Of a stretch of 35,325 bases of DNA, positions 10,125-23,470 are shown piece by piece. Position numbers and translations under genes: made by a program. The notes beneath the pieces were generated by a model. That model had not been told where the DNA came from. It saw only the letters and a program-made list of their open reading frames with translations, and searched no databases. The DNA comes from a virus: positions 1-35,325 of IMG/VR virus record IMGVR_UViG_3300035660_001483; one strand, 5' to 3'. Each line of letters begins with the position of its first letter. Positions within the stretch are counted from its first letter, which is position 1.

Positions 10125-10147
10125 AAAGGGGGAAGTGTGTGATGGCC

Positions 10148-10726
10148 TCAACGCGTCAGCTCGAACCTGCCGCGGGCGGTCTTGCGGAAGCGGGCATCGT
10201 CGCCCTTCTTCTGTATCTCGCGCAGGACGGCGGCGTAGACGGTCGCCGCCGGCGTCTTGCCTCCGGTCTTCCAGTAGCCCTTCTCAAGGGCGCGCTCGAC
10301 GATGGCCTTGCACGAGAGCGGCTCGCCGGCCTCCTCGAGCACCTTCGCCGCGGCGTCCAGGCCGCTCATCGCGCCGTCGCCGTCCACGGGCGCGCGTGTG
10401 GCGAGCTTCTTGGCCTTGGTAGCCTTGGCCTCGCGCTTGGCCTTCTTTGCGCCCCTGGCGCCCCCGGTAGCCCGTGGCGCCCGCCCATCGGCCGGCGGGC
10501 AAGCGTCAGGTTCCTCGGGTGCGAGCGCCGCCTCGCCGCGGCCCAGGTAGTCGTCCCAGAGGCACCGGAGCCGCCCGGCGCTCTTGACGCGGACCTGGCG
10601 GTTCGTCTGCTGGTTCGTGCCGACCCACCCGCCCGCCGGATGCTCCTCGTCGATGACGACCGGAGCCATCTTGTCCGAAACCTTCACGGCATACACCTCG
10701 CCAACGCGCACTTCGGCCTTCTTCAT
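10148..10726 (-). CDS. HARE-HTH domain protein
   Basis: 192 residues. The N-terminal half (about 1-60) is a small beta-rich domain with VRVGEVYAVKVSDKMAPVVI and WDDYLGRG. The middle is a disordered, Lys/Ala-rich linker (KKAKREAKATKAKK). The C-terminal 70 residues (GLDAAAKVLEEAGEPLSCKAI... to FELT) match the winged-helix HARE-HTH domain found in RNA polymerase delta, ASXL and several restriction or DNA-modifying proteins. DNA binding is therefore likely. GGAGG lies eight bases before the ATG. Odd: residues around ACPPADGRAP come from repeat copy R3 inside the linker. Role in the accessory operon is unknown; a regulator or nucleoid-type protein is plausible. Confidence 0.78.
   Translation of the reverse strand: MKKAEVRVGEVYAVKVSDKMAPVVIDEEHPAGGWVGTNQQTNRQVRVKSAGRLRCLWDDYLGRGEAALAPEEPDACPPADGRAPRATGGARGAKKAKREAKATKAKKLATRAPVDGDGAMSGLDAAAKVLEEAGEPLSCKAIVERALEKGYWKTGGKTPAATVYAAVLREIQKKGDDARFRKTARGRFELTR
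10480..10504 (+). repeat. CCCGCC/GGCGGGCAAGC repeat, copy R3
   Basis: CCCGCC, eight-base loop, GGCGGGCAAGC. It lies antisense in the linker of the HARE-HTH gene and is translated without breaking the frame. Confidence 0.6.
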
Positions 10727-10729
10727 CGC

Positions 10730-10969
10730 TCAGTCCTCCACCTTCTTCTTGAGGGCGTCGATGGTCGTCTGCATCGTCTGCCCGGCGCCACCGACGTAGT
10801 CATGGTCCTCGTCCAGGGCGGTCCGCATGTGCGACCACCAATAGGCCTCCGCCCAATTCCATTCCTCCGGCGCGGCGTCTTCGAGCGCGTTACGTGCGTC
10901 CTCCAGGGCCTCGATGATGCGGTCCCTGGCGTCCGTCAGGACGTCCGCCGCTTCCTCCTTCGTCATCAT
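10730..10969 (-). CDS. Hypothetical protein, 79 aa
   Basis: Small acidic helical protein starting MMTKEEAADVLTDARDRI, with an aromatic EEWNWAEAYWW patch in the middle and DHDYVGGAGQT later. No family recognised. ATG 10969 is chosen because GGAG lies eight bases upstream; the longer in-frame ATG at 10987 would sit in the stop region of the preceding gene. It is three bases from the HARE-HTH start and clearly part of the same operon. Confidence 0.68.
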   Translation of the reverse strand: MMTKEEAADVLTDARDRIIEALEDARNALEDAAPEEWNWAEAYWWSHMRTALDEDHDYVGGAGQTMQTTIDALKKKVED

Positions 10970-10983
10970 CCGGCTTGCTCCTT

Positions 10984-11268
10984 TCACTGCTCGAGCATGT
11001 CCGCCAGATACCGCGCCAGCTGGCCGACGCTGGCCAGCGACACATCAGTGCCACCGTCCGGGCCGGCGCCGTCTGCGGCGATGGCCCGCGCGACCGCGCG
11101 GAGCCCGGCCGCGTCGGTTTCCTTGCCCTGCTCTGCGAAGCCCGCTACGCAGGGCGAAGCAGAGTCCCAACCCGGCAGGCGGAGCCAACCCTCGCAGCCT
11201 TCGAGGACGTCGGCTGCGCGCCTGAGCGAGAACACCGCTTCCCAGACCTTCTGCTTCTTCGATGCCAC
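10984..11268 (-). CDS. Hypothetical protein, 94 aa, carrying a palindromic repeat insertion
   Basis: Unrecognised small protein starting VASKKQKVWEAVFSLRRAADVLEG. GTG 11268 is chosen over a longer ATG because GGAGGTGA lies five bases upstream. The middle (about WDSASPCVAGFAEQ) is encoded by a palindromic repeat at 11131-11164 that seems to have been inserted in frame into a linker. The C-terminal helix, LASVGQLARYLADMLEQ, looks conserved in style. The stop lies 15 bases before the next gene. Confidence 0.62.
   Translation of the reverse strand: MASKKQKVWEAVFSLRRAADVLEGCEGWLRLPGWDSASPCVAGFAEQGKETDAAGLRAVARAIAADGAGPDGGTDVSLASVGQLARYLADMLEQ
11131..11164. repeat. Imperfect palindromic repeat in a small accessory gene
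   Basis: CTCTGC (11131-11136) and GCAGAG (11159-11164) flank an inner CCC...GGG pair around GCTACGCA. With its flanks it shares CTGCTCTGCGAAG with the repeat at 2926-2957, on the opposite strand. It is translated in frame on the minus strand. Confidence 0.58.
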
Positions 11269-11272
11269 GGCG

Positions 11273-11530
11273 TCACCTCCCTTCCTTGCCAGCGGTTTCT
11301 GCTGGCTGTTGCGTTGGCACGTCTCTATCAGACACAAGGACCGCAAGGAGCGCAGTGCACAGGGCAGTGGCGTGATGCCGGCAGAGCAGAATCTCACGCC
11401 ATCCTCTGCCGCCAGGCACCTCGACCATCACCGTCCCTGCCGTGTGGCATTCGTCAACACAGCAGTGGTATCCCCTGACCCTGCGCACAGGCAAACCCGC
11501 CGCGCACACCTCTTGTTCTCCTGCGTTCAT
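11273..11530 (-). CDS. Small Cys/His-rich hypothetical protein, 85 aa
   Basis: Contains GYHCCVDECHTAGTV and ILLCRHHATALC, an arrangement of Cys and His residues that could bind a zinc ion. No family recognised. The C-terminus is a non-conserved tail (TQQPAETAGKEGR). The ribosome-binding site is weak (GGGAGG 12 bases away), but the gene fits exactly between its neighbours (six bases after the upstream stop, four before the next start). That supports it as a real operon member. Confidence 0.55.
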   Translation of the reverse strand: MNAGEQEVCAAGLPVRRVRGYHCCVDECHTAGTVMVEVPGGRGWREILLCRHHATALCTALLAVLVSDRDVPTQQPAETAGKEGR

Positions 11531-11536
11531 GCGCCC

Positions 11537-11797
11537 CTACGACCTCCCTTCCTTCGAGAGTTCTTCCCGCAGCCGGCGCGTCACGTCCCCCGGCTCCTGC
11601 TGGGCCAGGAAGCACAGCGCCTCAATCATCAAGCCCTGCACGTGGCTCAGGTCGCCAGCGTGTGCCCAGTTGATGCCGTCCTTCTGGGCAAACTCGGCGT
11701 GGTGGGCGACCTCCTCCTTCAGCATGTCCGCAAGTTTGTCGACGTCCCGGCGCCGCACCTCGTAGGCCGCCGCCGCCGTCTGCTTCCTCTCTGCCAT
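11537..11797 (-). CDS. Hypothetical protein, 86 aa
   Basis: Helical soluble protein (MAERKQTAAAAYEVRRRDVD...). A central GINWAHAGDLSHVQGLMIEALCFLA segment predicts amphipathic helices. No family recognised. GGGAGG five bases before the ATG is a good ribosome-binding site. The gene is packed between the 83-aa and 85-aa genes of the minus-strand operon. Confidence 0.66.
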   Translation of the reverse strand: MAERKQTAAAAYEVRRRDVDKLADMLKEEVAHHAEFAQKDGINWAHAGDLSHVQGLMIEALCFLAQQEPGDVTRRLREELSKEGRS

Positions 11798-11809
11798 GTG
11801 GGCCTCCCT

Positions 11810-12061
11810 TTAATCCGCGAGCATCTGGATGATGCGGGCGTAGTCCGCCACGTCGCCCTTGGTGCCGATGTAGCCGTCCAGAGCGTGCTGGACGCGCCGG
11901 GCGAGCTCGTCGAGGTTGGCGGTCTGGCTCGCGCCCACCACGTGCGTGTGGTCGAGCATGCCGCCGTCCCAAATCGCCACAATCACGTTGCCGCCATCGC
12001 GCGTGAACGCGGCTCGGCGCCATGCATTCCTGCCCTCTACCTCTACCCTCATCGTCCTCAT
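11810..12061 (-). CDS. Hypothetical protein, 83 aa
   Basis: Small alpha/beta protein beginning MRTMRVEVEGRNAWRRAAFT, followed by NVIVAIWDGGMLDHTHVVGA and a helical C-terminus (RIIQMLAD). No family recognised. GGAG lies seven bases before the ATG, and the gene starts 27 bases after the amidoligase stop. It is probably co-transcribed with the amidoligase; a functional link is only inferred from order. Confidence 0.65.
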   Translation of the reverse strand: MRTMRVEVEGRNAWRRAAFTRDGGNVIVAIWDGGMLDHTHVVGASQTANLDELARRVQHALDGYIGTKGDVADYARIIQMLAD

Positions 12062-12084
12062 GGCCCTCTCCTACTGGCTAGAGT

Positions 12085-12108
12085 CCGCCTACCGGCCGGC
12101 GGGCAAGC
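12085..12108 (+). repeat. CCCGCC/GGCGGGCAAGC repeat, copy R4, supplying the amidoligase stop
   Basis: CCGCC, loop TACCGGCC, GGCGGGCAAGC. Antisense to the amidoligase, its reverse complement encodes SLPAGR followed by TAG at 12089-12091. The loop sequence matches copy R5 at 28469-28492. Confidence 0.62.
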
Positions 12109-13030
12109 TCGCGTCGAACTTCCGCGCCAGGCGCATCAGCTCGCGCTTGACCGGGCGCAGCGCGCCCATGTCGTCCACCCAGCCCTCGACCGTGCAGGTC
12201 GGCTTGTAGTAGTCCTTGCGGCCGCGGGTCCAGCCCATCAGGTAGAAGAACCTCTTCATCGCCCCGGCGGCGCTCGTGCCGGCGTAGCCCGTCACCGGCG
12301 CGTCGAAGGTTGTGTCGCGCTCCAGGGCGCGCGTGGCGGCGGCCAGGGCCATCTGGACGTAGGCCGTCATCTTCAGGGCCTCGACCGTGCCGCTGAAGGC
12401 CCTGAACTCGACCGTGCGCGTAGCGCCGAAGACGTTCTGGACGTTCAGGAGCTGATACCTGTCGACGCCGGCTGCCTCAAGCCTCAAGGCCTCGGCGGTC
12501 ATCTTCTTCTTCAGGACCTCCTTCTTGCGGCCCCACGTGCCCTGCCTCAGGCTCGCGCAGTAGCGGCTGTTCTGCCGCCTGCGGCTGCCGGTAGCCCCGT
12601 AGAAGGCCATCTCGTGGTGGGCGGTCAGGTTGAGGAGGCGTCGCACCCAGTCGGCCACCTCGTCGTAGTCGTTGCCGGCGGCGCTGACCACCCCGACGTG
12701 GACGTGGAACCCGCAGGTCGGGTTGACGCGGGCGTTCATGCGCCCCAGGAGTTCGGCGACCACCTTGACCTCCTCCAGGCCCTGGCGGCCGCGGAGGACC
12801 GGGCTGACCACCTCGACGCCCTCGTAGTTGGGCAGGCGGGTGGAGAGGCTGCCATCGCGCTGGGCGTTCCAGCCTGGGGGGAACTCGCCGCCGAGCTCTC
12901 GGCCGGCGTGGTGGCCGCCGACCTGGACGGCGCCGCGGGGCAGGAAGCACTCGACCTCGACGCCGAAGGTGATGTCCTGCGCGCGCGGGTGCGGGGCCTG
13001 CGTCTGGCGCGCGGGCGGCGTGGCCTCCAT
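12089..13030 (-). CDS. Putative amidoligase (COOH-NH2 ligase family)
   Basis: 313 residues, resembling the amidoligase family (PF12224-like), ATP-grasp-related or glutamine-synthetase-fold enzymes predicted to join carboxyl and amino groups in peptides or cell-wall material. Seen: the opening strand ITFGVEVECFLP (about 20-31) with acidic metal/ATP-binding residues, TCGFHVHVG (105-113), NVQNVFGATRTVEFRAFSGT, and a helical C-terminus. GGGAG lies about nine bases before ATG 13030; longer reading frames would run into the divergent terminase genes. It is the first gene of the minus operon, after a candidate promoter at 13082-13110. The C-terminus is cut by repeat R4. The substrate is unknown; capsid, wall or small-peptide modification are all possible. 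Confidence 0.78.
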   Translation of the reverse strand: MEATPPARQTQAPHPRAQDITFGVEVECFLPRGAVQVGGHHAGRELGGEFPPGWNAQRDGSLSTRLPNYEGVEVVSPVLRGRQGLEEVKVVAELLGRMNARVNPTCGFHVHVGVVSAAGNDYDEVADWVRRLLNLTAHHEMAFYGATGSRRRQNSRYCASLRQGTWGRKKEVLKKKMTAEALRLEAAGVDRYQLLNVQNVFGATRTVEFRAFSGTVEALKMTAYVQMALAAATRALERDTTFDAPVTGYAGTSAAGAMKRFFYLMGWTRGRKDYYKPTCTVEGWVDDMGALRPVKRELMRLARKFDASLPAGR

Positions 13031-13081
13031 CTGTCCTATCTCCCTTCTCTCGCCTGTGTTACGTTCATCGTTCACGACTGC

Positions 13082-13110
13082 ATGATTGCTCGTTCCGCAG
13101 GGGACATCAA
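13082..13110 (-). promoter_or_regulatory. Candidate sigma-70 promoter of the minus-strand operon
   Basis: On the minus strand: TTGATG (complement of 13105-13110), 17-base spacer, AATCAT (complement of 13082-13087). Each box matches four of six consensus bases. It lies about 50 bases upstream of the amidoligase ATG in the divergent intergenic region. Confidence 0.4.
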
Positions 13111-13167
13111 GGCTTTTCCGCCAGACTCGGCGAGATTCCGGCATGTCGCAAGTGGGCCGGGTTGAAA

Positions 13168-13182
13168 GGCATGTGACATGCC
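13168..13182. promoter_or_regulatory. Palindrome GGCATGTGACATGCC over the start of the small terminase-like gene
   Basis: Perfect seven-base arms around a central G, covering the ATG at 13178. A further half-site GGCATGT lies at 13140-13146, 28 bases upstream. It is placed as an operator would be, between the divergent operons. Which protein binds it is unknown; the HTH proteins next door are candidates. Confidence 0.4.
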
Positions 13183-13378
13183 CGAAAAGAAACCTCTGAA
13201 TCCGATGGCCCTGACGCTCGACGAGGCGGCCAAGACGCTCGGCCTGCCGCGCGAATGGCTGGAGGAGGACCTGGCGGCGGGGGCGCCGCGGAACGCCGAC
13301 GGGACCCTCAACCTGGTGCACTACGCGGCGTGGCTGAACGCGGCCGGGCGGGAGGACGCCGATGCCGAGCCCGCCTGA
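13178..13378 (+). CDS. Nu1-like helix-turn-helix protein, possible small terminase subunit
   Basis: 66 residues with a helix-turn-helix/wing pattern: ALTLDEAAKTLGLPREWLEEDL, then DGTLNLVHYAAWLNAAGR. This resembles the DNA-binding fold of small terminase subunits (lambda Nu1-like), which recognise the packaging site. Its position just before the large terminase supports that role. The domain is visibly similar to residues 17-70 of the large subunit itself. AAGG lies about eight bases before the ATG. The stop overlaps the terL start by 17 bases. It is shorter than a classical small subunit and lacks an oligomerisation tail, so it may only bind DNA. Confidence 0.62.
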   Translation: MPEKKPLNPMALTLDEAAKTLGLPREWLEEDLAAGAPRNADGTLNLVHYAAWLNAAGREDADAEPA

Positions 13379-15650
13379 CAGCCGGCGGACAGGGCTTGAC
13401 CCCAGGGCTCTGAGGCCGGCCGAACTGGCCCGGCTCCTGAACTCCACGCCCCTGGGCGAGGTGCTGCAGTCGCACACCATCTACCGGCAACGCAACCGGG
13501 CCGGATACCGCATCGGCGACGGGCAGACCATCGACCTCGTCCGCTACGTGGCGTGGCTCGCGCGGGAGCGCCACGCGCCGAGGCCCCCCAGGCCGGAGCC
13601 GAGCTACGAGGACCTGAAGGAGCGGGCCCGTGAGCGCAACGCCCGCCTCTCGGCCGAGGGACGCGACATCGCGCCGCTGCCAGCTGTGGCAGACCCCGAC
13701 CGCAAGGCGAGGGCGTCGGGGAGTTTCAGGGCATTCTGCGAGACCTACTTCTTGCAGACGTTCTGCCTCGCCTGGTCACCCGACCACCTGAAGGTCGTCG
13801 CCCGGATCGAGCAGGCCGTTCTCCACGGCGGCCTCTTCGCGCTCGCCATGCCCCGCGGGTCGGGCAAGACCAGCCTCTGCGAGCGCGCCTGCATCTGGGC
13901 GATCCTGACCGGCGCGCGCCGCTTCGTCTGCCTGATAGGGAGCGATGAGGGACACGCCGTCAACATGCTCGACACGATCAAGACCGAGCTCGAGTCGAAC
14001 GACCTGCTCCTGGAGGACTTCCCCGAGGCGGTCCACCCCATCCGCTGCCTGGAAGGCATCGCCAACCGCTGCGCCGGTCAGCTCTACGAGGGGCGCCGCA
14101 CCTTCATCGAGTGGACGGCCAAGGAACTCGTCCTGCCCACCATACCGGGCAGCTCGGCAAGCGGCGCGATCCTGAAGGTGGCGGGCATCACGGGGCGCAT
14201 ACGCGGCATGAAGCACCAGACCGCCGGGGGCGAATCCATCCGCCCCGACCTGGTCATCCTGGACGACCCGCAGACGGACGAGTCGGCGCGCAGCCTGTCT
14301 CAGTGCCAGGCGCGGGAGAGCATCCTGGCGGGCGCCGTGCTCGGCCTGGCGGGTCCTGGCAAGCGGATATCAGGCATCATGCCCTGCACGGTCATCAAGC
14401 CGGGCGACATGGCCGACCGCATCCTGAACCGCGAGACGCACCCGGAATGGAACGCAGAACGCATGAAGATGGTCTACTCGTTCCCGTCGCGGGCCGACCT
14501 CTGGGACCGCTACGCCGAGGTGCGCGCCGAGAGCCAGCGCGCAGGCAGCGACGGGCGCGAGGCGACGGACTTCTACCGGGACCGCCGGGCCGAGATGGAC
14601 GAGGGCGCCGCCGTGGCGTGGCCGGAGCGGTTCAACCGGGACGAGCTATCGGCCGTCCAGCACGCCGTGAACCTGAAGCTCCGCGACGAGGCCACCTTCT
14701 GGGCCGAGTATCAGAACGAGCCCTTGGCCGTCACCGACGGTGAGGCGGAGGCGCTCGACGCCGACGCCGTGGCGAGCAAGTGCAACGGACGCGCGCGCGG
14801 CGAGGTGCCGGTGCGCTGCGAGCACCTGACCGCCTACGTGGACGTCGGGCAGAAGCTCCTCTTCTACGCCGTCTGCGCCTGGGAGCCGGACTTCACCGGC
14901 TACGTCGTGGACTACGGTACCTACCCGGAGCAGGCCCTGAGCTACTTCACCACGCGCGAGGTCGAACGGACGCTGCGGTGCGTCCATCCCGGCACGGGCG
15001 TCGAGGGCGCGGTGTACGCGGGGCTGGAGGCGCTCTGCGGGCGGCTGCTCGGTCAGGAGTGGAAGCGCGACGACGGCGCCGTCGTGCGGATCGGGCTATG
15101 CTTTGTGGACCAGGGGTGGCTGACGGACGTGGTGCACCAGTTCTGCAGGCAGTCCAGGCACGCGGCGCTGCTCATGCCGGCCCGCGGGCACGGAATCACG
15201 GCGAGCCAGAAGCCGATCAGCGAGTACGACCGCAAGCGCGGCGATCGGATCGGCCACCACTGGTGGGTGCCATCGGTGAAGGGCCGCCGGGCGCTCAGGC
15301 ACGTCGAGATCGACACGAACTACTGGAAGTCCTTCGTGCACGAGCGGCTGGCGACGGCGATGGGCGACCCTGGCTGCCTCTCCATCTTCGGCCGGAAAGC
15401 CGTCCAGCACCGCCTCTTCGCCGAGCACGTTACGGCCGAATATCGCGTCCGCACCGAGGGCCGGGGCCGGACCGTGGACGAGTGGAAGCTCCCCGCCCAC
15501 AAGCCCGACAACCACTGGTTCGACTGCGTGGTGGGCTGCGCAGCAGCCGCCTCGATGCAGGGCGTCGAGCGCATCGGCGCCCAGACAAAGCCCGTCGGCC
15601 AAAGGAAACGGCTCAAGCTGTCACAGGTACAGTTGCAGAAGCGCCGCTGA
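13362..15650 (+). CDS. terL: Large terminase subunit with fused N-terminal HTH
   Basis: 762-residue DNA-packaging motor that cuts concatemeric DNA and pumps it into the prohead through the portal. Seen: an N-terminal HTH-like domain (about 17-70; LRPAELARLLNSTPLGEVLQ, then TIDLVRYVAWLARER), Walker A MPRGSGKT (163-170), Walker B DLVILDDPQTDES (Asp301, Asp302), and a coupling-motif region after it. A C-terminal nuclease has YVDVGQ (492-497), CFVDQGW, and a final HKPDNHWFDCVVG. The overall layout recalls GpA-type terminases. GGGAGG lies six bases before ATG 13362. It is the last phage gene before the foreign ABC/DAC cassette; its normal neighbour, the 65-aa connector gene, lies 6 kb away. Confidence 0.87.
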   Translation: MPSPPDSRRTGLDPRALRPAELARLLNSTPLGEVLQSHTIYRQRNRAGYRIGDGQTIDLVRYVAWLARERHAPRPPRPEPSYEDLKERARERNARLSAEGRDIAPLPAVADPDRKARASGSFRAFCETYFLQTFCLAWSPDHLKVVARIEQAVLHGGLFALAMPRGSGKTSLCERACIWAILTGARRFVCLIGSDEGHAVNMLDTIKTELESNDLLLEDFPEAVHPIRCLEGIANRCAGQLYEGRRTFIEWTAKELVLPTIPGSSASGAILKVAGITGRIRGMKHQTAGGESIRPDLVILDDPQTDESARSLSQCQARESILAGAVLGLAGPGKRISGIMPCTVIKPGDMADRILNRETHPEWNAERMKMVYSFPSRADLWDRYAEVRAESQRAGSDGREATDFYRDRRAEMDEGAAVAWPERFNRDELSAVQHAVNLKLRDEATFWAEYQNEPLAVTDGEAEALDADAVASKCNGRARGEVPVRCEHLTAYVDVGQKLLFYAVCAWEPDFTGYVVDYGTYPEQALSYFTTREVERTLRCVHPGTGVEGAVYAGLEALCGRLLGQEWKRDDGAVVRIGLCFVDQGWLTDVVHQFCRQSRHAALLMPARGHGITASQKPISEYDRKRGDRIGHHWWVPSVKGRRALRHVEIDTNYWKSFVHERLATAMGDPGCLSIFGRKAVQHRLFAEHVTAEYRVRTEGRGRTVDEWKLPAHKPDNHWFDCVVGCAAAASMQGVERIGAQTKPVGQRKRLKLSQVQLQKRR

Positions 15651-15681: not shown

Positions 15682-15710
15682 TTGACAGGGAAGCTGCACA
15701 AGCGTAGGAT
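15682..15710 (+). promoter_or_regulatory. Strong sigma-70-like promoter of the cargo cassette
   Basis: TTGACA (15682-15687, perfect -35), 17-base spacer, TAGGAT (15705-15710, four of six). It lies 150 bases upstream of the first cassette gene and 32 bases after the terminase stop. The 15651-15858 stretch otherwise holds no gene that I can support. A private promoter is the hallmark of a phage moron. Confidence 0.65.
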
Positions 15711-15858
15711 TATGTGCGTCCTGGGGCATCGCGGTCAGGCGCGGTGACGAATCCGCAGTCGCCACATTGCGTCGGTAGCACGTCAGAATAGCCATGAGGA
15801 GATACGCAGTTGTTGGCGCCCGTCTGACACAGTGCACGTTAGAGAAGGGAGTCTGAGC

Positions 15859-16770
15859 GTGAGACTGTTCTCGCGCCCAATCGGTGTGCGTTCAGCGGAC
15901 ACGGATTGCCCCCGCTACGGCTCGGCAGAGTTGCCAGTTGAGTACATGCCCCTTAGCCAGAAGACGCTGACGACCGGTGAACAGTTCGGACCCATCTCGT
16001 TCAGCATATCACCCTCGTCGCATGAGCATCATCTGGCGTACCTAAAAGCCTGCGGCATCGACGCCATCGAGCAGGGGCAGTTATTGCCCTCGGAGTACTG
16101 GCCTCTCGCCCGTGTCTTGTCGCAGTGGCGCTTCGGAAGGCTGAACGAAGTTATAGCTCTTCGCGCCGGCCGCACCGTCTTTGTTAGACCCTTGACGGGA
16201 GAGACGGTGCTTGCTACGAGTCGTGTTCGGTCTGTGTTCAAGCGGCAGGGCTTGTGTTTCGGTGTGTTCGACTCTGTCGTCAAGGCCGAGTGCGGCTCAC
16301 TGTGTATGCTTGCTGAAGACGTCCTCCTCCTGGCAAACGGATGCGACCCCGTGGCCCTTCGCAGGGCCATAGTGCGGACGGATCGTACTGGCGGCATGGT
16401 AGATGCTGACGGCACGCTGGCGGTCATTGCATCCTGGCGTCTTCAACTACGCTACCCGTGGCCGGATGACAAGTGGAAAAACAATGTGCACACTGACACC
16501 TATGCCACCTCGTTGGGCTACAGATGTGCGTTGGTCGAGGGGCCGGGCGTCATGGACATCGTCTACTGCCACGATCAGGAGCGGAGCCCAGCAAACCGCG
16601 TCAGGCTTTCCTGGAGACATGTTCGCCCTCTCTACCACGGATCGCCTATTGTCCTTCTTACTGGCAACGCGGTCAGCGGGGCCAGCAGACGCTATTACTT
16701 GTGCGAGGCTTCCGATGAGCTGTCGTGGAGGCCCCGCTTGTTGCTCAGCGCGGAGGTGATTGGGATATGA
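15859..16770 (+). CDS. Double-hotdog MaoC/HTD2-like acyl dehydratase homologue
   Basis: 303 residues. The C-terminal half (about 180-303) carries the pattern of HTD2/mesaconyl-CoA hydratase-type hotdog proteins: NNVHTDTYATSLGYRCALVE, then RLSWRHVRPLYHGSPIVLLTG. The N-terminal half resembles a degenerate first hotdog (GPISFSISPSSHEHHLAYLK; ETVLATSRVRSVFKRQG). Family members hydrate or dehydrate acyl-thioesters. The usual Asp five residues before the catalytic His is replaced by Trp, so activity is uncertain and it may only bind an acyl-CoA or related ligand. GTG 15859 is chosen for GGGAG seven bases upstream. The stop overlaps the next start (ATGA), which ties it to the transporter. Confidence 0.55.
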   Translation: MRLFSRPIGVRSADTDCPRYGSAELPVEYMPLSQKTLTTGEQFGPISFSISPSSHEHHLAYLKACGIDAIEQGQLLPSEYWPLARVLSQWRFGRLNEVIALRAGRTVFVRPLTGETVLATSRVRSVFKRQGLCFGVFDSVVKAECGSLCMLAEDVLLLANGCDPVALRRAIVRTDRTGGMVDADGTLAVIASWRLQLRYPWPDDKWKNNVHTDTYATSLGYRCALVEGPGVMDIVYCHDQERSPANRVRLSWRHVRPLYHGSPIVLLTGNAVSGASRRYYLCEASDELSWRPRLLLSAEVIGI

Positions 16771-17759
16771 GCGCCAAGAGGATCGTCATCGCAGTAGGGA
16801 TGTTTGCCGTTGTGCTAACCTTAGTGTGGGCAGTGGCCCATAGGCGTACGAACCATGGGGCGTCGACTCAGGGAATGCCCCTGAGGATACCGGACACAAG
16901 GTTCATGGGGATCCTGCCCTTGTATATCGCCGAAGAACAGGGCTTCTTCCGAAAACAAGGAGTGGAACTCCGCTGGATCGATGTGCGCGATCCCGGGCAA
17001 GCAGAGAAGCTTTTCCACGCCGGGCAAGCGGACCTCATCATGACAACATTTGCGAATCTGATGCCAGCTGAAGCACGGCTGCCTGGGACGCTACGTCTTC
17101 TCTATCCAATATGCGAGTTGTCCTCCCGTCCGGGTAGTTTCATCCTGGTGCGTCCGGACTCCGACATAACGAGTCTTCAGGATCTCCGGGGCAAGAGCGT
17201 CGGCACGTACTCGGGGCCGAGTCAGAAGGCCTACGCCCTTATCGTTCTTCGTAAGCTTGGCTTCAAAGAGCCAGAGGACGTTCGTCTCGTGCAGGTAGCA
17301 AGCGCAACGCAGGTGCAAGGCTTGTTCGGAGGATCGTACGACGCTCTGTTCACTGTGGAAACGTACGGCTCTACGGCAGTTGCGAATGGTGCTCGTGTTC
17401 TTGAGGAGGGCGTGCGCACGAAGTACATCAGCGACCCATTCTGGCTCGGAGCCGCTGCTGTAAAGTCATCGTGGGCAAGAGAGAACCCGGCGGGAGTTGA
17501 GGCCGTCCTGAAAGCACTTGAAGAGGCTGCGGCGTACATAGAGGCGCATGAGCCGGAGGCGCGGGATACATTAGCGCGACGGACTCAGACCGAGCCCGCC
17601 GTGGCACGGAGGTGCGCTCTGTACAAGTGGGTGCCTCACCCTACGCGTCAGGAAATCGAGCAGATTCAAGCTCACGTTGACCTACTGGCGGACGAGAAGC
17701 TCATCGAGAAGAAGATCGACGTGGAGCCCCTATTCATGGGAACCGCAAATGCCGACTAG
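16767..17759 (+). CDS. ABC transporter substrate-binding protein (NitT/TauT, NMT1/THI5-like)
   Basis: 330 residues. A hydrophobic signal or anchor segment (about 5-25, IVIAVGMFAVVLTLVWAVAH) is followed by a two-lobed binding protein with hallmark motifs: LPLYIAEEQGFFRKQGVELRWI, GQADLIMTTFANLMPA, and LQDLRGKSVGTYSG. This family feeds alkanesulfonate, taurine, nitrate or thiamine-precursor importers; the ligand cannot be read from sequence. No lipobox Cys is seen, so it may be membrane-anchored or free in the periplasm. ATG 16767 overlaps the previous stop, with GGAGG ten bases upstream. Its codon use (ATA, TTA, CTA, AGA present) differs from the flanking phage genes. Confidence 0.85.
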   Translation: MSAKRIVIAVGMFAVVLTLVWAVAHRRTNHGASTQGMPLRIPDTRFMGILPLYIAEEQGFFRKQGVELRWIDVRDPGQAEKLFHAGQADLIMTTFANLMPAEARLPGTLRLLYPICELSSRPGSFILVRPDSDITSLQDLRGKSVGTYSGPSQKAYALIVLRKLGFKEPEDVRLVQVASATQVQGLFGGSYDALFTVETYGSTAVANGARVLEEGVRTKYISDPFWLGAAAVKSSWARENPAGVEAVLKALEEAAAYIEAHEPEARDTLARRTQTEPAVARRCALYKWVPHPTRQEIEQIQAHVDLLADEKLIEKKIDVEPLFMGTANAD

Positions 17760-18510
17760 CTCTAGCCCATCCCCAGCACACGGCAGGGCCAGCATGGTCG
17801 CGGCCGATAGCGTGTCGTTCTCCGTCCGCACACGCACGGGCCCCTTTCCCATCATAGACAGCATCAGTGTTGGCCTTGGTCCGCGTGAGATCGTTGGTGT
17901 GTTGGGGCCCAATGGTTGCGGCAAGACCACGTTCCTGAGAATCCTTGCGCGGCTACTGGCGCCTACCACAGGCACGGTCAACTACTGCGATGACATGGGA
18001 GCTGTGGGCATGGTCTTCCAGAATGCCCAGCAGAATCTGGTCCCCTGGTGGACCGCCTTGGAGAACGTCGCGCTTCCCGCGACGCTGGCGCGGAGGGATC
18101 GTGACGGCGCATTGCAGAACGCTAGAGGTGCACTCTCGCACATGGGCCTGAGCGAGCTCGCGGCAAGGCACCCAAACGAGGTCAGCGGAGGGCAGCAGCA
18201 GTTGTTGAGTTTAGCGCGATGGACCGTAAACCGCCGGTCAGTCTTGCTAGTTGACGAAGGCTGGGCAATGCTTGATCTTGTCCAGAGACAACGAGCCTAC
18301 GACATCCTCAGGAGCCTCGCTGACGACGGGTGCGCGGTGTGTGTCGTCAGCCATAACGTCGCCGAACTTGCTGGCGTCGCCTCTCGAGTGCTAATCCTGA
18401 CGAGCCGACCGGCGAGAGTTGCTCAAGAGGTGATCCTAAGTCTGGACGATTCCCAGGTGAAGCGGAGTGAGAACCTATGGGAGGTCGCGAGGCGCGTCTT
18501 TCATACCTGA
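17749..18510 (+). CDS. ABC transporter ATPase (SsuB/TauB-like)
   Basis: 253 residues, the energising subunit of the importer. Seen: Walker A GPNGCGKTT, Q-loop VFQNAQQNLVPWW, signature VSGGQQQLLSLAR, Walker B VLLVDEGWAMLD, and H-loop VVSHN. All catalytic residues are present, though the usual Pro after the Walker B Glu is Gly. The chosen ATG (17749) overlaps the binding-protein stop by 11 bases; an alternative ATG at 17794 would remove a variable Ser/Pro-rich leader. It overlaps the permease start by 34 bases. The cytoplasmic partner should pair with the permease just downstream. Confidence 0.88.
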   Translation: MPTSSSPSPAHGRASMVAADSVSFSVRTRTGPFPIIDSISVGLGPREIVGVLGPNGCGKTTFLRILARLLAPTTGTVNYCDDMGAVGMVFQNAQQNLVPWWTALENVALPATLARRDRDGALQNARGALSHMGLSELAARHPNEVSGGQQQLLSLARWTVNRRSVLLVDEGWAMLDLVQRQRAYDILRSLADDGCAVCVVSHNVAELAGVASRVLILTSRPARVAQEVILSLDDSQVKRSENLWEVARRVFHT

Positions 18511-19241
18511 TACTGGGCCTGGCGCTGATCATGGTGCTGTTTGGCGTCTGGGAGTGGGCCGGCCGAACAGGCAGAGTCTCAGCGCTTGCCTTACCGGTAC
18601 CATCTCGTGTCCTCGTCGAATGTGCGCGCCTGCCGCTTTCAGCACAGTTCGTTGAGAACTGGACCGCAACTCTGGGCGTATGGTTCACGTCCCTGTTGCT
18701 CGGGTTGTCAGCGGGTCTGCTCCTGGGCTTTACATCCGGAGCTAGTAGACCGGTGTCACTGGCTATTCTTCCTCTCGTTGGCTACCTCCGTTCGGTTCCC
18801 CCAATCGCATTGTTCCCGGTGGCCTTAGTCGCGTTAGGCCCAGGCAATCTGCCAGTGGGCGTTGTTGCTACTCTCGGCGCAGCGTTGTATGTATTCCCTG
18901 GTACGGCCGAAGCTGCTAGAGAGGCGGCCGCACGTTTCGCTGACCTTGCTAAGATACTGGGGAGCAGCAGGACCGCTTTCCTGATCCACTTCGTTGCGCC
19001 GGGAGCAGCGGTTCAAGCTGTTGCCTCAAGTCGTGTGGCAGCCACGTATGCCTTCGCCGTCTGTGTTGCCGGCGAGATGATAATCGGTGGCAGGCACGGC
19101 GTTGGCGCGGCGATCCTGGATGCATCAGAACGGTACCTCCTCGAACAGGCTTATGCGTATGTAGTCTACACAGGGCTCGTTGGCCTTGTCATCGACCTCC
19201 TGTTCGGGCGGGTTAGTCGTGTCCAACGCCTTGGGCTCTAG
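18477..19241 (+). CDS. ABC transporter permease (SsuC/TauC-like)
   Basis: 254-residue inner-membrane permease with about six hydrophobic segments: YLILGLALIMVLFGVWEW, LGVWFTSLLLGLSAGLLLGF, LAILPLVGYLRSVPPIALFPVALVAL, VGVVATLGAALYVFPG, and later helices. An EAA loop (EAAREAAARFADLAKILGSSR) would contact the ATPase. This is the BPD_transp_1 fold of the sulfonate/nitrate/taurine class. GGAG lies about ten bases before ATG 18477. With the two preceding genes it makes a complete importer, unusual cargo for a phage late region. Confidence 0.87.
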   Translation: MGGREARLSYLILGLALIMVLFGVWEWAGRTGRVSALALPVPSRVLVECARLPLSAQFVENWTATLGVWFTSLLLGLSAGLLLGFTSGASRPVSLAILPLVGYLRSVPPIALFPVALVALGPGNLPVGVVATLGAALYVFPGTAEAAREAAARFADLAKILGSSRTAFLIHFVAPGAAVQAVASSRVAATYAFAVCVAGEMIIGGRHGVGAAILDASERYLLEQAYAYVVYTGLVGLVIDLLFGRVSRVQRLGL

Positions 19242-19280
19242 GAATCCAGGCCACTGGCGGGTGGTGGGGAGGCGCATACC

Positions 19281-21383
19281 ATGCTCACGCTATACACTGA
19301 GTTGAAGACGATCCTCCGGAAGAAGCTGGATGCCGTCATAGATGAGACTGGAGCGCCCCTAGTGTTTGGACATATCTGCATGGGCGACCTGCAGAAGCCG
19401 GGAGCCTTTCGCCTGACGCACATAGTTCTAGGGGAGAACGGTGGCTCGCCGCTGGTGAAGTTGTCGAGAGAGTCGGGCGTGAGCCATGAGGCCGCCTTTG
19501 GTCGCCACATCAATGTCTTCGGTCGACACGCTGCGCTGTTGGACTGGATAACGCTCTGGCTTCACGACAACTGCCGTTTCGTGGAGCCGCACACGCCGCG
19601 AGACGAGAGGCAGTTCAGCTTTCTCATCAGTGCTGCCCCGGACGCTCTGTACTTGTCGGCCAGCGCCACTTCCGTGACAGCTTCCGGGGAGCTATGTGAG
19701 GACCTGCTACCCCAGGACGTCGTTGCTCGATACCTTGTCTTCCTTTACTCCTCGCGTGGTACCCCTCCTCGGTCAGCCGAACCGATTCCGTTCGAGGCGC
19801 AGCGGCTTATGGGAGCGCGTTCGGCCTGTCTGCGGCGGATGCAGGAAGATAGACACCAGGCGTGCCGTGCCATTGTAGCCAGTCTGAGCGGGAAGTACGA
19901 CCGGCGCAACGTTCCAGAGTCATACCGCGATTGGGCCTTTCTGGGGGCGCTTCAGACGGGCCTGATGTACGCGCGCGCGTCCTTCGCCGATGGTTCTGAC
20001 TCCGCCGGCTTTGTGTCTTTCGGCTGCTGCTACAACCTGCATCGGGACCCTACTTGTATTGCCCAGAACCCTGTCGGAATCATCTCTGCAGTCTTGCCGA
20101 GAGGCCCGGAGACATTCGATAGCTATTCGGGCTTCTTCAGTGAGCTGCTAAGTGGGGAACTTGACCACACGATACATCAGGTACAGAGATACCATAACCT
20201 GCCGGATGGCCACCGTCTGGCAGTCACCGAGAGAGGGCAGTGGCCTGGTGAAAAGATCAGCACGTGCCTGGAAGAAGAGATACAAAGGGTCTTCGAGGTC
20301 AGCGCTTTCCCGGGGTGGACCCATGCGCTGCTGGTATGGATGGCAATGGTAGTTGAGCACTTGCGCGGGGCGAAACATGAACAGCGTTCGCTAAACTTCT
20401 GCTTTGTCGTAGCTGACAAGTCGCAGGTATTGGACAGCGGGGTGTTCGACGTGCTTGCGCTCATGCTACCGCGGCCAGGCGAAGATGATTATGTTCTCCT
20501 ACCGTGGGATAAGGAGGGGAACAAGAGGCAGGGGTTGAACGTGGGGAAACTCCTAGACGTAATGAAGCGCGAGATCAGCAAGAAGAACTACGCTTGGTTT
20601 CAGGAAGGTAAGTACGCCCTCCTATGGGATGCGACTTTCCCCAGTGCATACCCGTCGGCGTTGATTCGCTTTAGAGATAGTTCATGGGATGTGTTCCTCA
20701 ATGATGTCCGCATGAGGAGGTTGAACAGAGCCACTGCAGTCATCCCCGCGCTGGTGTACATACGGGGGGATGGCAGCGGCGGGATTGTCCTCGAGGGCAG
20801 GCACGTTTACTCTTTCCGTGGTTCCGGGCAATGGTCCCGTGGCGACGGGAACAAGCAAGGACGCATTCGGGAGTACTTGAGACAGCATGTCAACGGATGG
20901 GACGTGAAGGTTGAGGACCTTGACCGCCTCTGCAGCATAATGGCCGATGCCTTGGTAGCCATAGCAGAGGATCCGGATTCTGGATGCATGCTGGTTGTGT
21001 ATTGTGCAAAGAATAGCCCGCATCAGTTCCGGCGCATGGGGGAGCCGTGGTTGACTGAGCACGGCGACAACCCTTTAGCAATGTCATGCGACGAACTGAC
21101 CGCACTGATGTCTATGGACGGCGCCACATGTCTCTACGCCGACACGAGTGTTGTGAGGGTCGCGTTCCGCCGACTGGTGAGCGTTCCTGATGGGCGGATA
21201 GCTATCAAGGAGCAGGATGAGCACGAGCATCTGGATGGCAGGGGGGCCCGGACATGGAGTGGGGCATATGCTGCAGGGCGCCCGGGGGTGGCTACTGTCT
21301 TCAACGTATCGCAGGATGGCCCCATAACGGTCTACGAGAAGGATGAGGCAACAGGCGAAGTCTGCCTCAAGGAGGAGTTCTAA
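19281..21383 (+). CDS. Diadenylate-cyclase-like (DisA_N/DAC) protein with large N-terminal region
   Basis: 700 residues. The last 150 (about 542-690) follow the DAC pattern: an initial helix, SGCMLVVYCAKN (the GALIV-type strand), a CDELTALMSM helix, DGATCLY (Asp613-Ala615, the DGA motif), GRGARTWSGAYAA where GTRHRAA is normal, and FNVSQDGPITVYEKDE (the VVSQDG strand). DAC domains condense two ATP into cyclic di-AMP. Here RHR is changed to RTW (657-659), so catalysis is doubtful; it may be a divergent cyclase or a nucleotide sensor. The N-terminal 540 residues are unrecognised; residues about 455-540 (VIPALVYIRGDGSGGI..., SFRGSGQW) look like the sensor segments that precede DAC domains in some bacterial proteins. 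GGGGAGG lies eight bases before the ATG. It closes the ABC cassette operon. Confidence 0.62.
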   Translation: MLTLYTELKTILRKKLDAVIDETGAPLVFGHICMGDLQKPGAFRLTHIVLGENGGSPLVKLSRESGVSHEAAFGRHINVFGRHAALLDWITLWLHDNCRFVEPHTPRDERQFSFLISAAPDALYLSASATSVTASGELCEDLLPQDVVARYLVFLYSSRGTPPRSAEPIPFEAQRLMGARSACLRRMQEDRHQACRAIVASLSGKYDRRNVPESYRDWAFLGALQTGLMYARASFADGSDSAGFVSFGCCYNLHRDPTCIAQNPVGIISAVLPRGPETFDSYSGFFSELLSGELDHTIHQVQRYHNLPDGHRLAVTERGQWPGEKISTCLEEEIQRVFEVSAFPGWTHALLVWMAMVVEHLRGAKHEQRSLNFCFVVADKSQVLDSGVFDVLALMLPRPGEDDYVLLPWDKEGNKRQGLNVGKLLDVMKREISKKNYAWFQEGKYALLWDATFPSAYPSALIRFRDSSWDVFLNDVRMRRLNRATAVIPALVYIRGDGSGGIVLEGRHVYSFRGSGQWSRGDGNKQGRIREYLRQHVNGWDVKVEDLDRLCSIMADALVAIAEDPDSGCMLVVYCAKNSPHQFRRMGEPWLTEHGDNPLAMSCDELTALMSMDGATCLYADTSVVRVAFRRLVSVPDGRIAIKEQDEHEHLDGRGARTWSGAYAAGRPGVATVFNVSQDGPITVYEKDEATGEVCLKEEF

Positions 21384-21472
21384 TGGGCCGTCGGCCTATG
21401 AGCTGCGGCGCCAGTCTGGCAGCGACACAGCGGAACGAGGCCCCTGTGGCGCTTGTATCCCCGCGGCAGGGC

Positions 21473-21500
21473 TTGCGACATGGCGCAGAACGTATAGGAT
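21473..21500 (+). promoter_or_regulatory. Candidate promoter after the cargo cassette
   Basis: TTGCGA (21473-21478), 16-base spacer, TAGGAT (21495-21500). The -10 box is identical to that of the cassette promoter at 15705. It lies 90 bases after the DAC-like stop and would fire toward the terminator-like hairpin and the head genes. The -35 match is moderate. Confidence 0.4.
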
Positions 21501-21563
21501 GATGGAGTAAAAGGAGCATTGGGGAACGCCGGGCGGCTGATCACCGTCGGGCCGAAGAGCCAA

Positions 21564-21620
21564 GGAAACCAACGGGCCGTGCAGGGGCCTGCACCCTCTG
21601 CGCGGCCCGTTTTCTTTGGC
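21564..21620 (+). terminator. Terminator or attenuator hairpin before the head operon
   Basis: AACGGGCCG (21571-21579) pairs with CGGCCCGTT (21603-21611), with an inner TGCAGG/CCTGCA hairpin, followed by TTCTTT. The stem can extend because upstream CCAAGGAAACC partly complements downstream GTTTTCTTTGG. It should end cassette transcripts, or act as an attenuator or antitermination target for the promoter at 21473. The stretch 21384-21633 holds no other gene I can support. Confidence 0.68.
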
Positions 21621-21633
21621 GGAAGGGATGCAC

Positions 21634-21831
21634 ATGGCGGACGAGCTGAAGGACGTCATCGAGAAGAGTGCCCAGGGGCCGAAAAGGGCCAAGGGCGACG
21701 TGGGCGAGGTCGAGCAGCACTCGCTGACTGAGCAGATCGAGGCCGACCGGTACCTCGCGTCGCGCGAGGCGCGGGCAAAGCCGCACAAGGCGCTTCGGTT
21801 CGCCAAGCTGTCGCCGCCAGCAGCGGATTAG
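21634..21831 (+). CDS. Small head-region protein between terminase and portal
   Basis: 65-residue protein (MADELKDVIEKSAQGPKRAKGD...SVEQHSL-type layout: GEVEQHSLTEQIEADRYLAS...RFAKLSPPAAD). This type commonly sits between terminase and portal in lambda-like head clusters, occupying the position of gpW-like or small head proteins. Its exact role is unsettled. ATG 21634 is chosen because GGAAGGG lies seven bases upstream; ATG 21628 is too close to it. The acidic N-terminal helix and basic C-terminus fit a small DNA- or portal-associated protein. It resumes the phage late operon after the cargo. Confidence 0.72.
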   Translation: MADELKDVIEKSAQGPKRAKGDVGEVEQHSLTEQIEADRYLASREARAKPHKALRFAKLSPPAAD

Positions 21832-21847
21832 GGCCACGGAGAACAGC

Positions 21848-23470
21848 GTGTTTGCATGGCTGAAAAGGATGGCGGGGACCACCGAGGCCGCCGATCGCGC
21901 GCCCGGAGAGGCGCACCGGCTGAGTGACGCCGTGCTCGCCAGGCGCTACCTCGCCGTGGTCCGCGCCCGCGGGCTGCGTGCCAGCCCTTCGACGGGCTCA
22001 GGGCGACTTGTCAGTCGCTACGACGCGGCAGCGACCACCGAGGATAACCGCCGCCACTGGGCCAACGCCGATGCCCTGAGCGCGGACGCGGCCGCCAGCG
22101 CTGACGTGCGGCGCACGCTTCGCAACCGCGCCCGCTACGAGGTCGCCAACAACTCCTACGCCCGCGGGATCGTCCTCACGCTCGCCAACGACACGGTCGG
22201 CACCGGCCCCAGGCTCCAGATGCTGACCGGCGCGGACGGCATCAACCGCACGGTCGAGCGCGAGTTCGAGACGTGGGCGCTCGAAGTCGGCCTGGCGGAG
22301 AAGCTCCGCACCACGCGCATGGCCCGCGCGCAGGATGGCGAGTCCTTCGCGGTTCTGGCCACCAACCCGGCCCTTGACCATCCCGTGAAGCTCGACCTGC
22401 GCGTCATCGAGGCCGACCAGGTGACGACGCCGTTCCACTACGCAACGGACGAGAACGAGGTCGACGGCGTCGTGCTGGACCGCTACGGCAACCCCGCCGC
22501 CTACCACGTCCTGAAGGACCACCCCGGCGCGAACGGCTGGGCGTTCTCGGAGAGCTTCGTCACCGTGCCGGCGGCGGACATGATCCACGTCTTCAGGCAG
22601 GACAGGCCGGGGCAGCACCGCGGCGTGCCGGAGATCACGCCGGCGCTGCCGCTCTTCGCCCAGCTTCGGCGTTACACGCTGGCGGTCCTGAGCGCGGCCG
22701 AGACGGCGGCCGACCTCGCCGGCATCCTCTACACCGACACCCCGCCCGGCGGCGAGACCGAGGACATCGAGCCGCTCGACAGCATCCGGCTCGAGCGCGG
22801 CATGCTCATGACGATGCCGGGCGGCTGGAAGATGGGCCAGGTGCAGGCGCAGCAGCCCTCGACGACCTACGCGGAGTTCAAGAAGGAGATCCTGAACGAG
22901 ATCGCGCGCTGCCTCAACATGCCCTTCAACGTCGCCGCCGGAAACTCGTCGGGCTACAACTACGCCTCCGGCCGCCTCGACCACCAGACCTACTTCAAGA
23001 GCATCCGCGTCGACCAGGCCTTCATGGCCCAGAAGGTCCTCGACCGCATCCTGGCGGCGTGGCTCTGGGAGTACGCACTCGAGGCGGGGCTGGTAGACAG
23101 CGTGCCGATGGACGGCCTGAGGCGCATCTTGCCGGCGCACCAGTGGTTCTGGGACGGGATGGAGCACGTGGACCCGGCCAAGGAAGCGTCCGCCCAGGAG
23201 ACGCGCCTCAAGAACCACACCACGACGCTGGCGCATGAGTACGCGCGCCAGGGCAAGGACTGGGAGGCGGAGCTCAGGCAGCGTGCGCGCGAGGTGTCGC
23301 TGATCCGCGAGCTGGGCCTTACAGAAGCCCAGGCGCGGCCGCAGCTCCCGGCGGGCCGGACCGACGAGGTCGAGGACGGCGCAGGCGACGAGGTTGAGGA
23401 GGCAGAGGCTCGGTCGCCGTACGGCGACCAAGGTGCGCCGTGCGGCGACCAAGCCCTGGCGCTGGCCTGA
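21848..23470 (+). CDS. Portal protein (lambda gpB-like)
   Basis: 540 residues forming the dodecameric vertex ring through which DNA is packaged. Seen: family blocks RNRARYEVANNSYARGIVLTLANDTVG, MARAQDGESFAVL, IHVFRQDRPGQHRGVPEITPAL, YAEFKKEILNEIARCLNMPFNVAAGNSSGYNYASGRLDHQ (clear lambda-type portal signature) and a C-terminal helical crown region. GTG 21848 has GGAG seven bases upstream. Odd: residues about 46-55 (SPSTGSGRLVS) come from a palindromic repeat at 21983-22011, and the last residues (ARSPYGDQ, CGDQ) from two tandem copies of a palindromic element. Both are in exposed or terminal regions. Confidence 0.9.
   Translation: MFAWLKRMAGTTEAADRAPGEAHRLSDAVLARRYLAVVRARGLRASPSTGSGRLVSRYDAAATTEDNRRHWANADALSADAAASADVRRTLRNRARYEVANNSYARGIVLTLANDTVGTGPRLQMLTGADGINRTVEREFETWALEVGLAEKLRTTRMARAQDGESFAVLATNPALDHPVKLDLRVIEADQVTTPFHYATDENEVDGVVLDRYGNPAAYHVLKDHPGANGWAFSESFVTVPAADMIHVFRQDRPGQHRGVPEITPALPLFAQLRRYTLAVLSAAETAADLAGILYTDTPPGGETEDIEPLDSIRLERGMLMTMPGGWKMGQVQAQQPSTTYAEFKKEILNEIARCLNMPFNVAAGNSSGYNYASGRLDHQTYFKSIRVDQAFMAQKVLDRILAAWLWEYALEAGLVDSVPMDGLRRILPAHQWFWDGMEHVDPAKEASAQETRLKNHTTTLAHEYARQGKDWEAELRQRAREVSLIRELGLTEAQARPQLPAGRTDEVEDGAGDEVEEAEARSPYGDQGAPCGDQALALA
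21983..22011. repeat. Repeat AGCCC-TTCGAC-GGGCT inside the portal gene
   Basis: Five-base arms AGCCC and GGGCT around TTCGAC, followed by CAGGGCGACTTGTC. It resembles a dispersed element (CCTTCGAC...GGCTCAGGGCGA) seen in many environmental bacterial genomes. Translated as SPSTGSGRLVS. Confidence 0.5.
23406..23450. repeat. Palindromic repeat, two tandem copies at the portal C-terminus
   Basis: Perfect 18-base palindrome GGTCGCCGTACGGCGACC at 23412-23429 and a variant GTGCGCCGTGCGGCGACC at 23433-23450. The 27 bases 23406-23432 are identical to 24187-24213. Translated as ARSPYGDQ. Confidence 0.75.

What the first reader, a model, noticed from the sequence alone, without database searches (positions are those of the whole stretch)
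15682..21620. Self-contained ABC importer plus diadenylate-cyclase-like cassette lodged between terminase and portal
Seen: a promoter TTGACA-17-TAGGAT, five co-directional genes with overlaps or short gaps (double-hotdog protein, binding protein, ABC ATPase, ABC permease, 700-aa DAC-like protein), and a terminator hairpin at the end. The DNA is visibly less GC-rich than the flanking head genes, and I find none of the palindromic repeats that pepper the rest of the window. Known: morons are cargo units with private promoters and terminators, and DAC domains make cyclic di-AMP. Inference: a recently acquired lysogenic cargo coupling uptake of a small ligand to an acyl-thioester-binding protein and a nucleotide-messenger-like effector or sensor. 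I know of no described phage system with this gene set. It may serve host metabolism, envelope homeostasis or defence against other phages.
Basis: partly seen in the sequence, partly recalled or inferred. Interest (0 to 1): 0.85.

Follow-up and report, generated by a model that had tools for sequence, protein, structure and literature searches.

The report
Importer cassette in phage cargo hotspot
A phage of Planctomycetota bacteria carries, in a slot between two of its capsid-building genes where its relatives carry other cargo (often anti-phage genes), a transferred five-gene unit. The unit encodes a small-molecule importer, a probably non-catalytic acyl-binding protein and a large protein ending in a damaged c-di-AMP-synthase-like domain. 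A four-gene core of the unit recurs beside restriction and Argonaute genes in another bacterium, so it may be an undescribed defence or sensing module.

Summary
The five co-directional genes and the low GC are real. The gene set is cargo: GC is 0.58-0.61 against 0.67-0.70 in the flanks, codon usage is shifted, and none of 122 relatives with both flanks (nearest portal 77% identical) carries it. The terL-to-portal gap is a general cargo hotspot in this Planctomycetota phage family. Of 122 gaps, 49 exceed 900 bp, with AbiEi/AbiEii, restriction-like nucleases, sulfatase and a CheB-CheR kinase among the contents.

The last gene's C-terminus is a DAC-fold domain by profile search, reference-aided AlphaFold and Foldseek. 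It keeps DGA and the first Arg but has lost the RH-motif His, so it is probably not a c-di-AMP synthase. The first gene is a MaoC-like double hotdog without the catalytic Asp and without a helix-sized segment of the second hotdog. The importer is SsuA/NMT1-type and its motifs look intact.

A planctomycete genome carries the same first four genes in the same order, with a cytidine-deaminase-like fifth gene. It lies next to type I R-M, Piwi/PD-(D/E)XK and two integrases. This suggests a four-gene core with an exchangeable nucleotide-related fifth gene, possibly defensive.

Corrections: the terminator is phage backbone, not private; the promoter is no better than chance. Function is untested; only two cores are known.

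The parts
13362..15650 (+). terminase large subunit (left boundary of the hotspot)
   Evidence: Pfam GpA_nuclease 8.5e-24; PHROG terminase 9.4e-36
15682..15710 (+). promoter-like site TTGACA-17-TAGGAT
   Evidence: 10 of 12 matches; count of such sites in the region not above shuffles
15832..16770 (+). gene 1, 312 aa: degenerate MaoC-like double hotdog protein (start codon uncertain)
   Evidence: homologue at the head of the same gene order in G313; pair profile hits double-hotdog proteins L198 5e-10 and L199 9e-5 among 5204 proteins; Trp at the catalytic Asp position and 16-aa deletion in the second hotdog
16725..17759 (+). gene 2: NMT1/SsuA-type substrate-binding protein with one N-terminal hydrophobic segment; ATG at 16767 is the likely start
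   Evidence: NMT1 2.3e-21; SsuA_fam 1.7e-25, below its cut-off; PDB 2x26 SsuA 1.7e-15; hydropathy
17794..18510 (+). gene 3: importer ABC ATPase (longest ORF from 17677)
   Evidence: ABC_tran 4e-24; Walker A GPNGCGKT, VSGGQ, Walker B VLLVDE and H-loop SH present
18477..19241 (+). gene 4: ABC importer permease
   Evidence: BPD_transp_1 1.1e-15; SaoP-like 2.4e-22, below cut-off; five hydrophobic segments
19281..21383 (+). gene 5, 700 aa: protein of unknown N-terminal part with a C-terminal DAC-fold domain
   Evidence: no Pfam/NCBIfam/PHROG/PADLOC/PDB sequence match; one distant full-length homologue, 738-aa ORF in G060, E 2.3e-38
20946..21380 (+). DAC-like domain (about residues 556-700), DGA 613-615 and GARTW 655-659 in place of G(T/S)RH
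21571..21611 (+). intrinsic-terminator hairpin; phage backbone, not cassette
21634..21831 (+). small gene in the gpW position (right boundary), conserved in 121 of 122 relatives
21848..23470 (+). portal protein
   Evidence: Phage_portal_2 8.6e-64

Best explanation
Shown: in a phage of the Planctomycetota-infecting family, a transferred five-gene unit fills the cargo hotspot between terL and the small gpW-position gene. The small zinc-ribbon gene that most relatives carry after terL is absent from the window. Genes 1-4 (pseudo-hotdog, binding protein, ATPase, permease) form a core found in the same order in an unrelated genomic island, where the fifth gene is a deaminase-like protein instead of the DAC-like one. 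Inferred: the core builds a high-affinity importer or membrane-facing ligand sensor for a small anion or pyrimidine-like compound, since its binding protein resembles SsuA, THI5 and nitrate-binding proteins. The non-catalytic hotdog protein would be a cytosolic binding subunit that gates or reports uptake. The fifth gene would be an exchangeable nucleotide-binding or nucleotide-modifying output: here a DAC-fold pocket probably unable to cyclise ATP, which reads a nucleotide; elsewhere a cytidine-deaminase fold. The most likely role is protection of the lysogen, against other phages or nucleotide-level stress, expressed from the prophage.
For: Cargo: composition and codon shift; absent from all relatives with both flanks; 122 gaps of which 49 exceed 900 bp, large gaps GC-poorer than flanks in 37 of 38. 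Core: G313:C9 homologues in the same order, 27% (2.7e-12), 34% (5.4e-55), 39% (7.2e-33) and 31% (1.2e-20), with a fifth gene matching dCMP_cyt_deam 2e-10. Defence neighbourhood: same contig carries HsdM, HsdS, HsdR, a weak Piwi match (1.3e-4) beside a PD-(D/E)XK nuclease, and two tyrosine integrases. Hotspot cargo includes AbiEii in 7 ORFs, AbiEi, REase-ARP, PDDEXK_13 and GmrSD. DAC fold without the catalytic His.
Against: Only two instances of the four-gene core were found (1 of 392 Planctomycetota genomes with gene 1 as query; none of 209 Pseudomonadota; none in plasmids or viral contigs). Defence is by neighbourhood only, and the hotspot also carries non-defence genes: sulfatase, beta-helix protein, CheB-CheR kinase. 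Binding-protein importers are usually metabolic. No PADLOC system matches. The gene-5 homologue in G060 stands without an importer, so genes 4 and 5 may not be one machine. The deaminase-like gene might be a chance neighbour.
Confidence: 0.42

Rival explanations
1. Metabolic cargo: the genes give the lysogen uptake of a scarce nutrient (a sulfonate, nitrate-like or thiamin/pyrimidine precursor), with the hotdog and fifth-gene proteins acting in its use. It is an auxiliary metabolic unit, not defence.
For: Binding protein closest to SsuA, nitrate-binding protein and THI5; ATPase and permease motifs intact; hotspot also carries sulfatase, FGE-type and chemotaxis-like genes; a distant SBP relative sits in a plasmid nitrile-hydratase operon.
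Against: Hotdog protein lacks the hydratase Asp; fifth genes are not recognisable catabolic enzymes; the other core instance lies by R-M, Piwi-like and integrase genes.
Confidence: 0.33
2. A membrane-homeostasis or signalling unit: gene 5 binds a nucleotide such as c-di-AMP, which the host phylum makes, and controls the importer, as c-di-AMP controls osmolyte transporters in other bacteria.
For: DAC genes occur in host-phylum genomes; DAC fold kept without the catalytic His; gene 5 directly follows the permease.
Against: The other core instance has a deaminase-like gene instead; the gene-5 homologue in G060 has no importer beside it; the ligand is unknown.
Confidence: 0.13
3. Decaying passenger: genes picked up by chance and eroding, without function.
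For: Second hotdog lacks 16 aa; atypical codon usage; no close homologues anywhere searched.
Against: All five frames are open with intact ABC motifs; the same gene order is kept at 27-39% identity in a different genome.
Confidence: 0.1

Closest known systems
Anti-phage hotspot of P2-like phages (PMC9122126)
   Same: Small variable slot with high turnover between two conserved genes near the portal gene, carrying exclusion/defence genes; here the slot lies between terL and the portal
   Different: Different phage family and host phylum; cos adjacency not tested; cargo here is mixed; the importer cassette is not among known systems
SsuABC/TauABC/NMT1-type ABC importers
   Same: Binding protein, ATPase and permease of this superfamily
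   Different: Scores well below every equivalog cut-off; embedded with a pseudo-hotdog and a DAC-like gene, in a phage
Diadenylate cyclases (DisA, CdaA, DacZ-like)
   Same: Fold and DGA motif
   Different: His of the RH motif replaced by Thr; below Pfam DAC detection; 540-aa N-terminal part of unknown kind
MaoC-like double-hotdog (de)hydratases
   Same: Two hotdog units, H..D..A..G motif region
   Different: Catalytic Asp position is Trp; a helix-sized segment of the second hotdog is missing in the window copy

Membership tests
Phage moron / hotspot cargo | Composition differs from flanking phage genes | tested here: met
Phage moron / hotspot cargo | Absent from related phages, which share the flanks | tested here: met
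Phage moron / hotspot cargo | Own promoter | tested here: inconclusive
   one 10/12 site, not above shuffles
Phage moron / hotspot cargo | Own terminator | tested here: not met
   hairpin is shared with cargo-less relatives
Diadenylate cyclase | DAC fold | tested here: met
   profile search, AlphaFold with DAC rows pLDDT 71, Foldseek top 30 all DACs; the model is partly circular because DAC rows were in its alignment
Diadenylate cyclase | DGA motif | tested here: met
   D613 G614 A615
Diadenylate cyclase | RH(R/x) motif | tested here: not met
   GARTW; the His is present in all 14 reference rows
Diadenylate cyclase | c-di-AMP synthesis | not testable with these tools
   needs assay
MaoC-like hydratase | Double-hotdog fold | tested here: met
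   profile search; no structure model made
MaoC-like hydratase | Catalytic Asp-His pair | tested here: not met
   His kept; Trp at the Asp position in both copies
Binding-protein ABC importer | Binding protein, permease and ATPase with Walker A, signature and Walker B | tested here: met
Known anti-phage defence system (PADLOC) | Match to a described system | tested here: not met
   only generic ATPase hits

The most novel reading that the evidence does not exclude
A new kind of prokaryotic immune or sensing module in which a complete binding-protein importer and a non-catalytic hotdog subunit form a conserved core that pairs with exchangeable nucleotide-handling outputs (DAC-like or deaminase-like), moved by temperate phages and islands.
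Probability: 0.33. Interest if true: 0.85.

Novelty: new variant of a known kind. Interest (0 to 1): 0.6.

Why it matters
A whole nutrient-type importer among phage structural genes is unusual, and linking one to nucleotide-binding or nucleotide-modifying proteins would join transport to phage conflict in a way I found no description of. Independently, the terL-portal slot gives a ready place to mine defence genes in Planctomycetota phages, for which no close cultured relative was found.

Tried and rejected
AlphaFold of full gene 5 with two sequences: pLDDT 32, discarded. Single-sequence and pair scans of viral contigs, GTDB contigs, plasmids and phages for genes 1-5 found no close relatives. 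Nostoc plasmid pNsp_i (L082) and Klebsiella plasmids (L081, L083) have a related SBP (23-27%); their neighbouring genes are not related to genes 1 or 5. Gene-5 search in 289 genomes of the phylum of G004 gave nothing. A private terminator was rejected. Active diadenylate cyclase was rejected as the leading reading because the RH-motif His is lost. The TerS-like look of the gene after the G060 homologue was not supported by any phage match. A first DAC comparison used wrongly oriented loci and was redone. Literature searches for 'DACNV' and for importer-based defence found nothing.

Full report
Observation. The five genes exist as described: a 312-aa protein, an NMT1/SsuA-type binding protein, an ABC ATPase (best start 17794), a permease and a 700-aa protein. 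They lie between a GpA-type terminase (13362-15650) and a lambda-type portal (21848-23470). GC falls to 0.56-0.61 from 0.66-0.71. Scored with the codon table of the phage core, the five genes give -1.32 to -1.55 against -0.73 to -0.98 for most replication and structural genes. AAA24 and RusA score about -1.1, and the ORFs at 10139-13162 and 33984-34634 are also low. The promoter is a 10/12 match but such sites are not enriched.

Site. Portal relatives in IMG/VR and in GTDB genomes show that the phage family infects Planctomycetota; it is integrated in large contigs including a complete chromosome (L161) and isolates such as Rhodopirellula rubra (L136). No cultured phage in the collection is close (portal identity at most 30%). 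In 122 relatives with both flanks the terL-portal gap has a median of 676 bp; 49 exceed 900 bp and 6 exceed 5 kb. Of the 38 gaps over 1.5 kb, 37 are GC-poorer than their flanks. A small gene in the gpW position is present in 121 of 122. Cargo includes AbiEii (7 ORFs), AbiEi, REase-ARP, PDDEXK_13, GmrSD, DUF5131, sulfatase and others, a CheB-CheR-PAS-kinase and a beta-helix protein. No relative carries any of the five cassette genes. A zinc-ribbon gene follows terL in most relatives but is absent from the window. The terminator at 21571-21611 has counterparts in cargo-less relatives, so the cassette ends before it. P2-like phages have a comparable defence hotspot between gpA and the portal, next to cos (PMC9122126).

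Gene 5. No library recognised it. One distant homologue (738-aa ORF, E 2.3e-38) was found in 392 Planctomycetota genomes, G060, without an importer; the region also holds a large ATPase/HEAT-repeat ORF (weak Pfam matches) about 3.5 kb away. A profile of the two C-termini, run against about 5,300 proteins, gave DAC and DAC-related proteins as its only significant hits apart from itself: 6.5e-4, 6.6e-4, 4.8e-3 and 8.7e-3. Aligned with 14 DAC or DAC-like rows, Gly, the Asp of DGA and the Arg of RH are invariant; the His is lost only in these two proteins. AlphaFold with that alignment reached pLDDT 71, and Foldseek's first 30 PDB hits are all DisA/CdaA proteins (TM 0.50-0.65, E from 2e-6). No viral predicted structure matched. 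The model is partly circular because DAC rows were in its alignment; the profile test is not. The N-terminal 540 residues remain unidentified.

Gene 1. A homologue in G313 (348 aa) allowed a pair profile. Its best hits among 5,204 proteins were two double-hotdog proteins, L198 (5e-10, both hotdogs, in swapped order) and L199 (9e-5); the homologue also matches a MaoC protein directly (5e-4 against 30 sequences). The motif KW(K/R)xN(V/I)H has Trp where hydratases (from general knowledge) have Asp, and the window copy lacks 16 residues in the second hotdog. Binding without hydration is inferred.

The core. G313:C9, in the phylum of the Phycisphaerales genome G006, carries genes 1-4 in the same order at 27-39% identity, followed by a deaminase-like gene (PF00383 2e-10). 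The cassette is at about 30.8-35.5 kb of the contig. The same contig holds HsdM/HsdS/HsdR at 1.8-12.7 kb, a Piwi-domain protein (weak, 1.3e-4) beside a PD-(D/E)XK nuclease at 16.1-19.4 kb, and two tyrosine integrases at 20.4-23.8 kb. This second, independent mobile/defence neighbourhood is the main ground for preferring a protective role. It is association, not proof.

Mechanism. I commit to an importer or membrane sensor with a cytosolic pseudo-hotdog subunit and an exchangeable nucleotide-related output. Fold, motifs, gene order and mobility are shown; ligand, signal, coupling and phenotype are inferred. The chief rival is metabolic cargo, at nearly equal weight.

Novelty. The hotspot is a new instance of a known kind. 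The gene set matched no described system in the libraries and papers searched, so I rate it a new variant of a known kind, with a categorically new module not excluded.

Noticed in passing
L129:4495-9450: A 1652-aa CheB-CheR-PAS-histidine kinase-receiver protein fills the same terL-portal slot in a Planctomycetota prophage.
   Followed up: no
window 10139-13165: The 1008-aa ORF has no Pfam match, low GC3 and inverted AT skew; the real genes here may lie on the minus strand, e.g. 12089-13480.
   Followed up: no
window 33984-34637: Another stretch with low GC (0.60) and atypical codon usage near the window end, possibly a second cargo site.
   Followed up: no
L002:716-1152, L003:9077-9766 and other relatives: Small NrdR-like zinc-ribbon gene directly after terL in most relatives, missing in the window.
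   Followed up: partly
L082:8932-13532: Nostoc plasmid pNsp_i has an unknown 320-aa gene, an SsuA-type binding protein, an ABC ATPase, a permease lacking its annotated N-terminus and an unknown 224-aa gene in a row, near PIN and COR-domain genes.
   Followed up: partly
L168:1474-5640 (-): 1388-aa ORF with weak AAA/nSTAND and HEAT matches in the same region as the gene-5 homologue in G060.
   Followed up: no
L195:1868-3364 (-) and L196:4938-6236 (+): Two planctomycete proteins of about 430-500 aa with a C-terminal DAC-like domain keeping GTRH and no other recognised part.
   Followed up: partly
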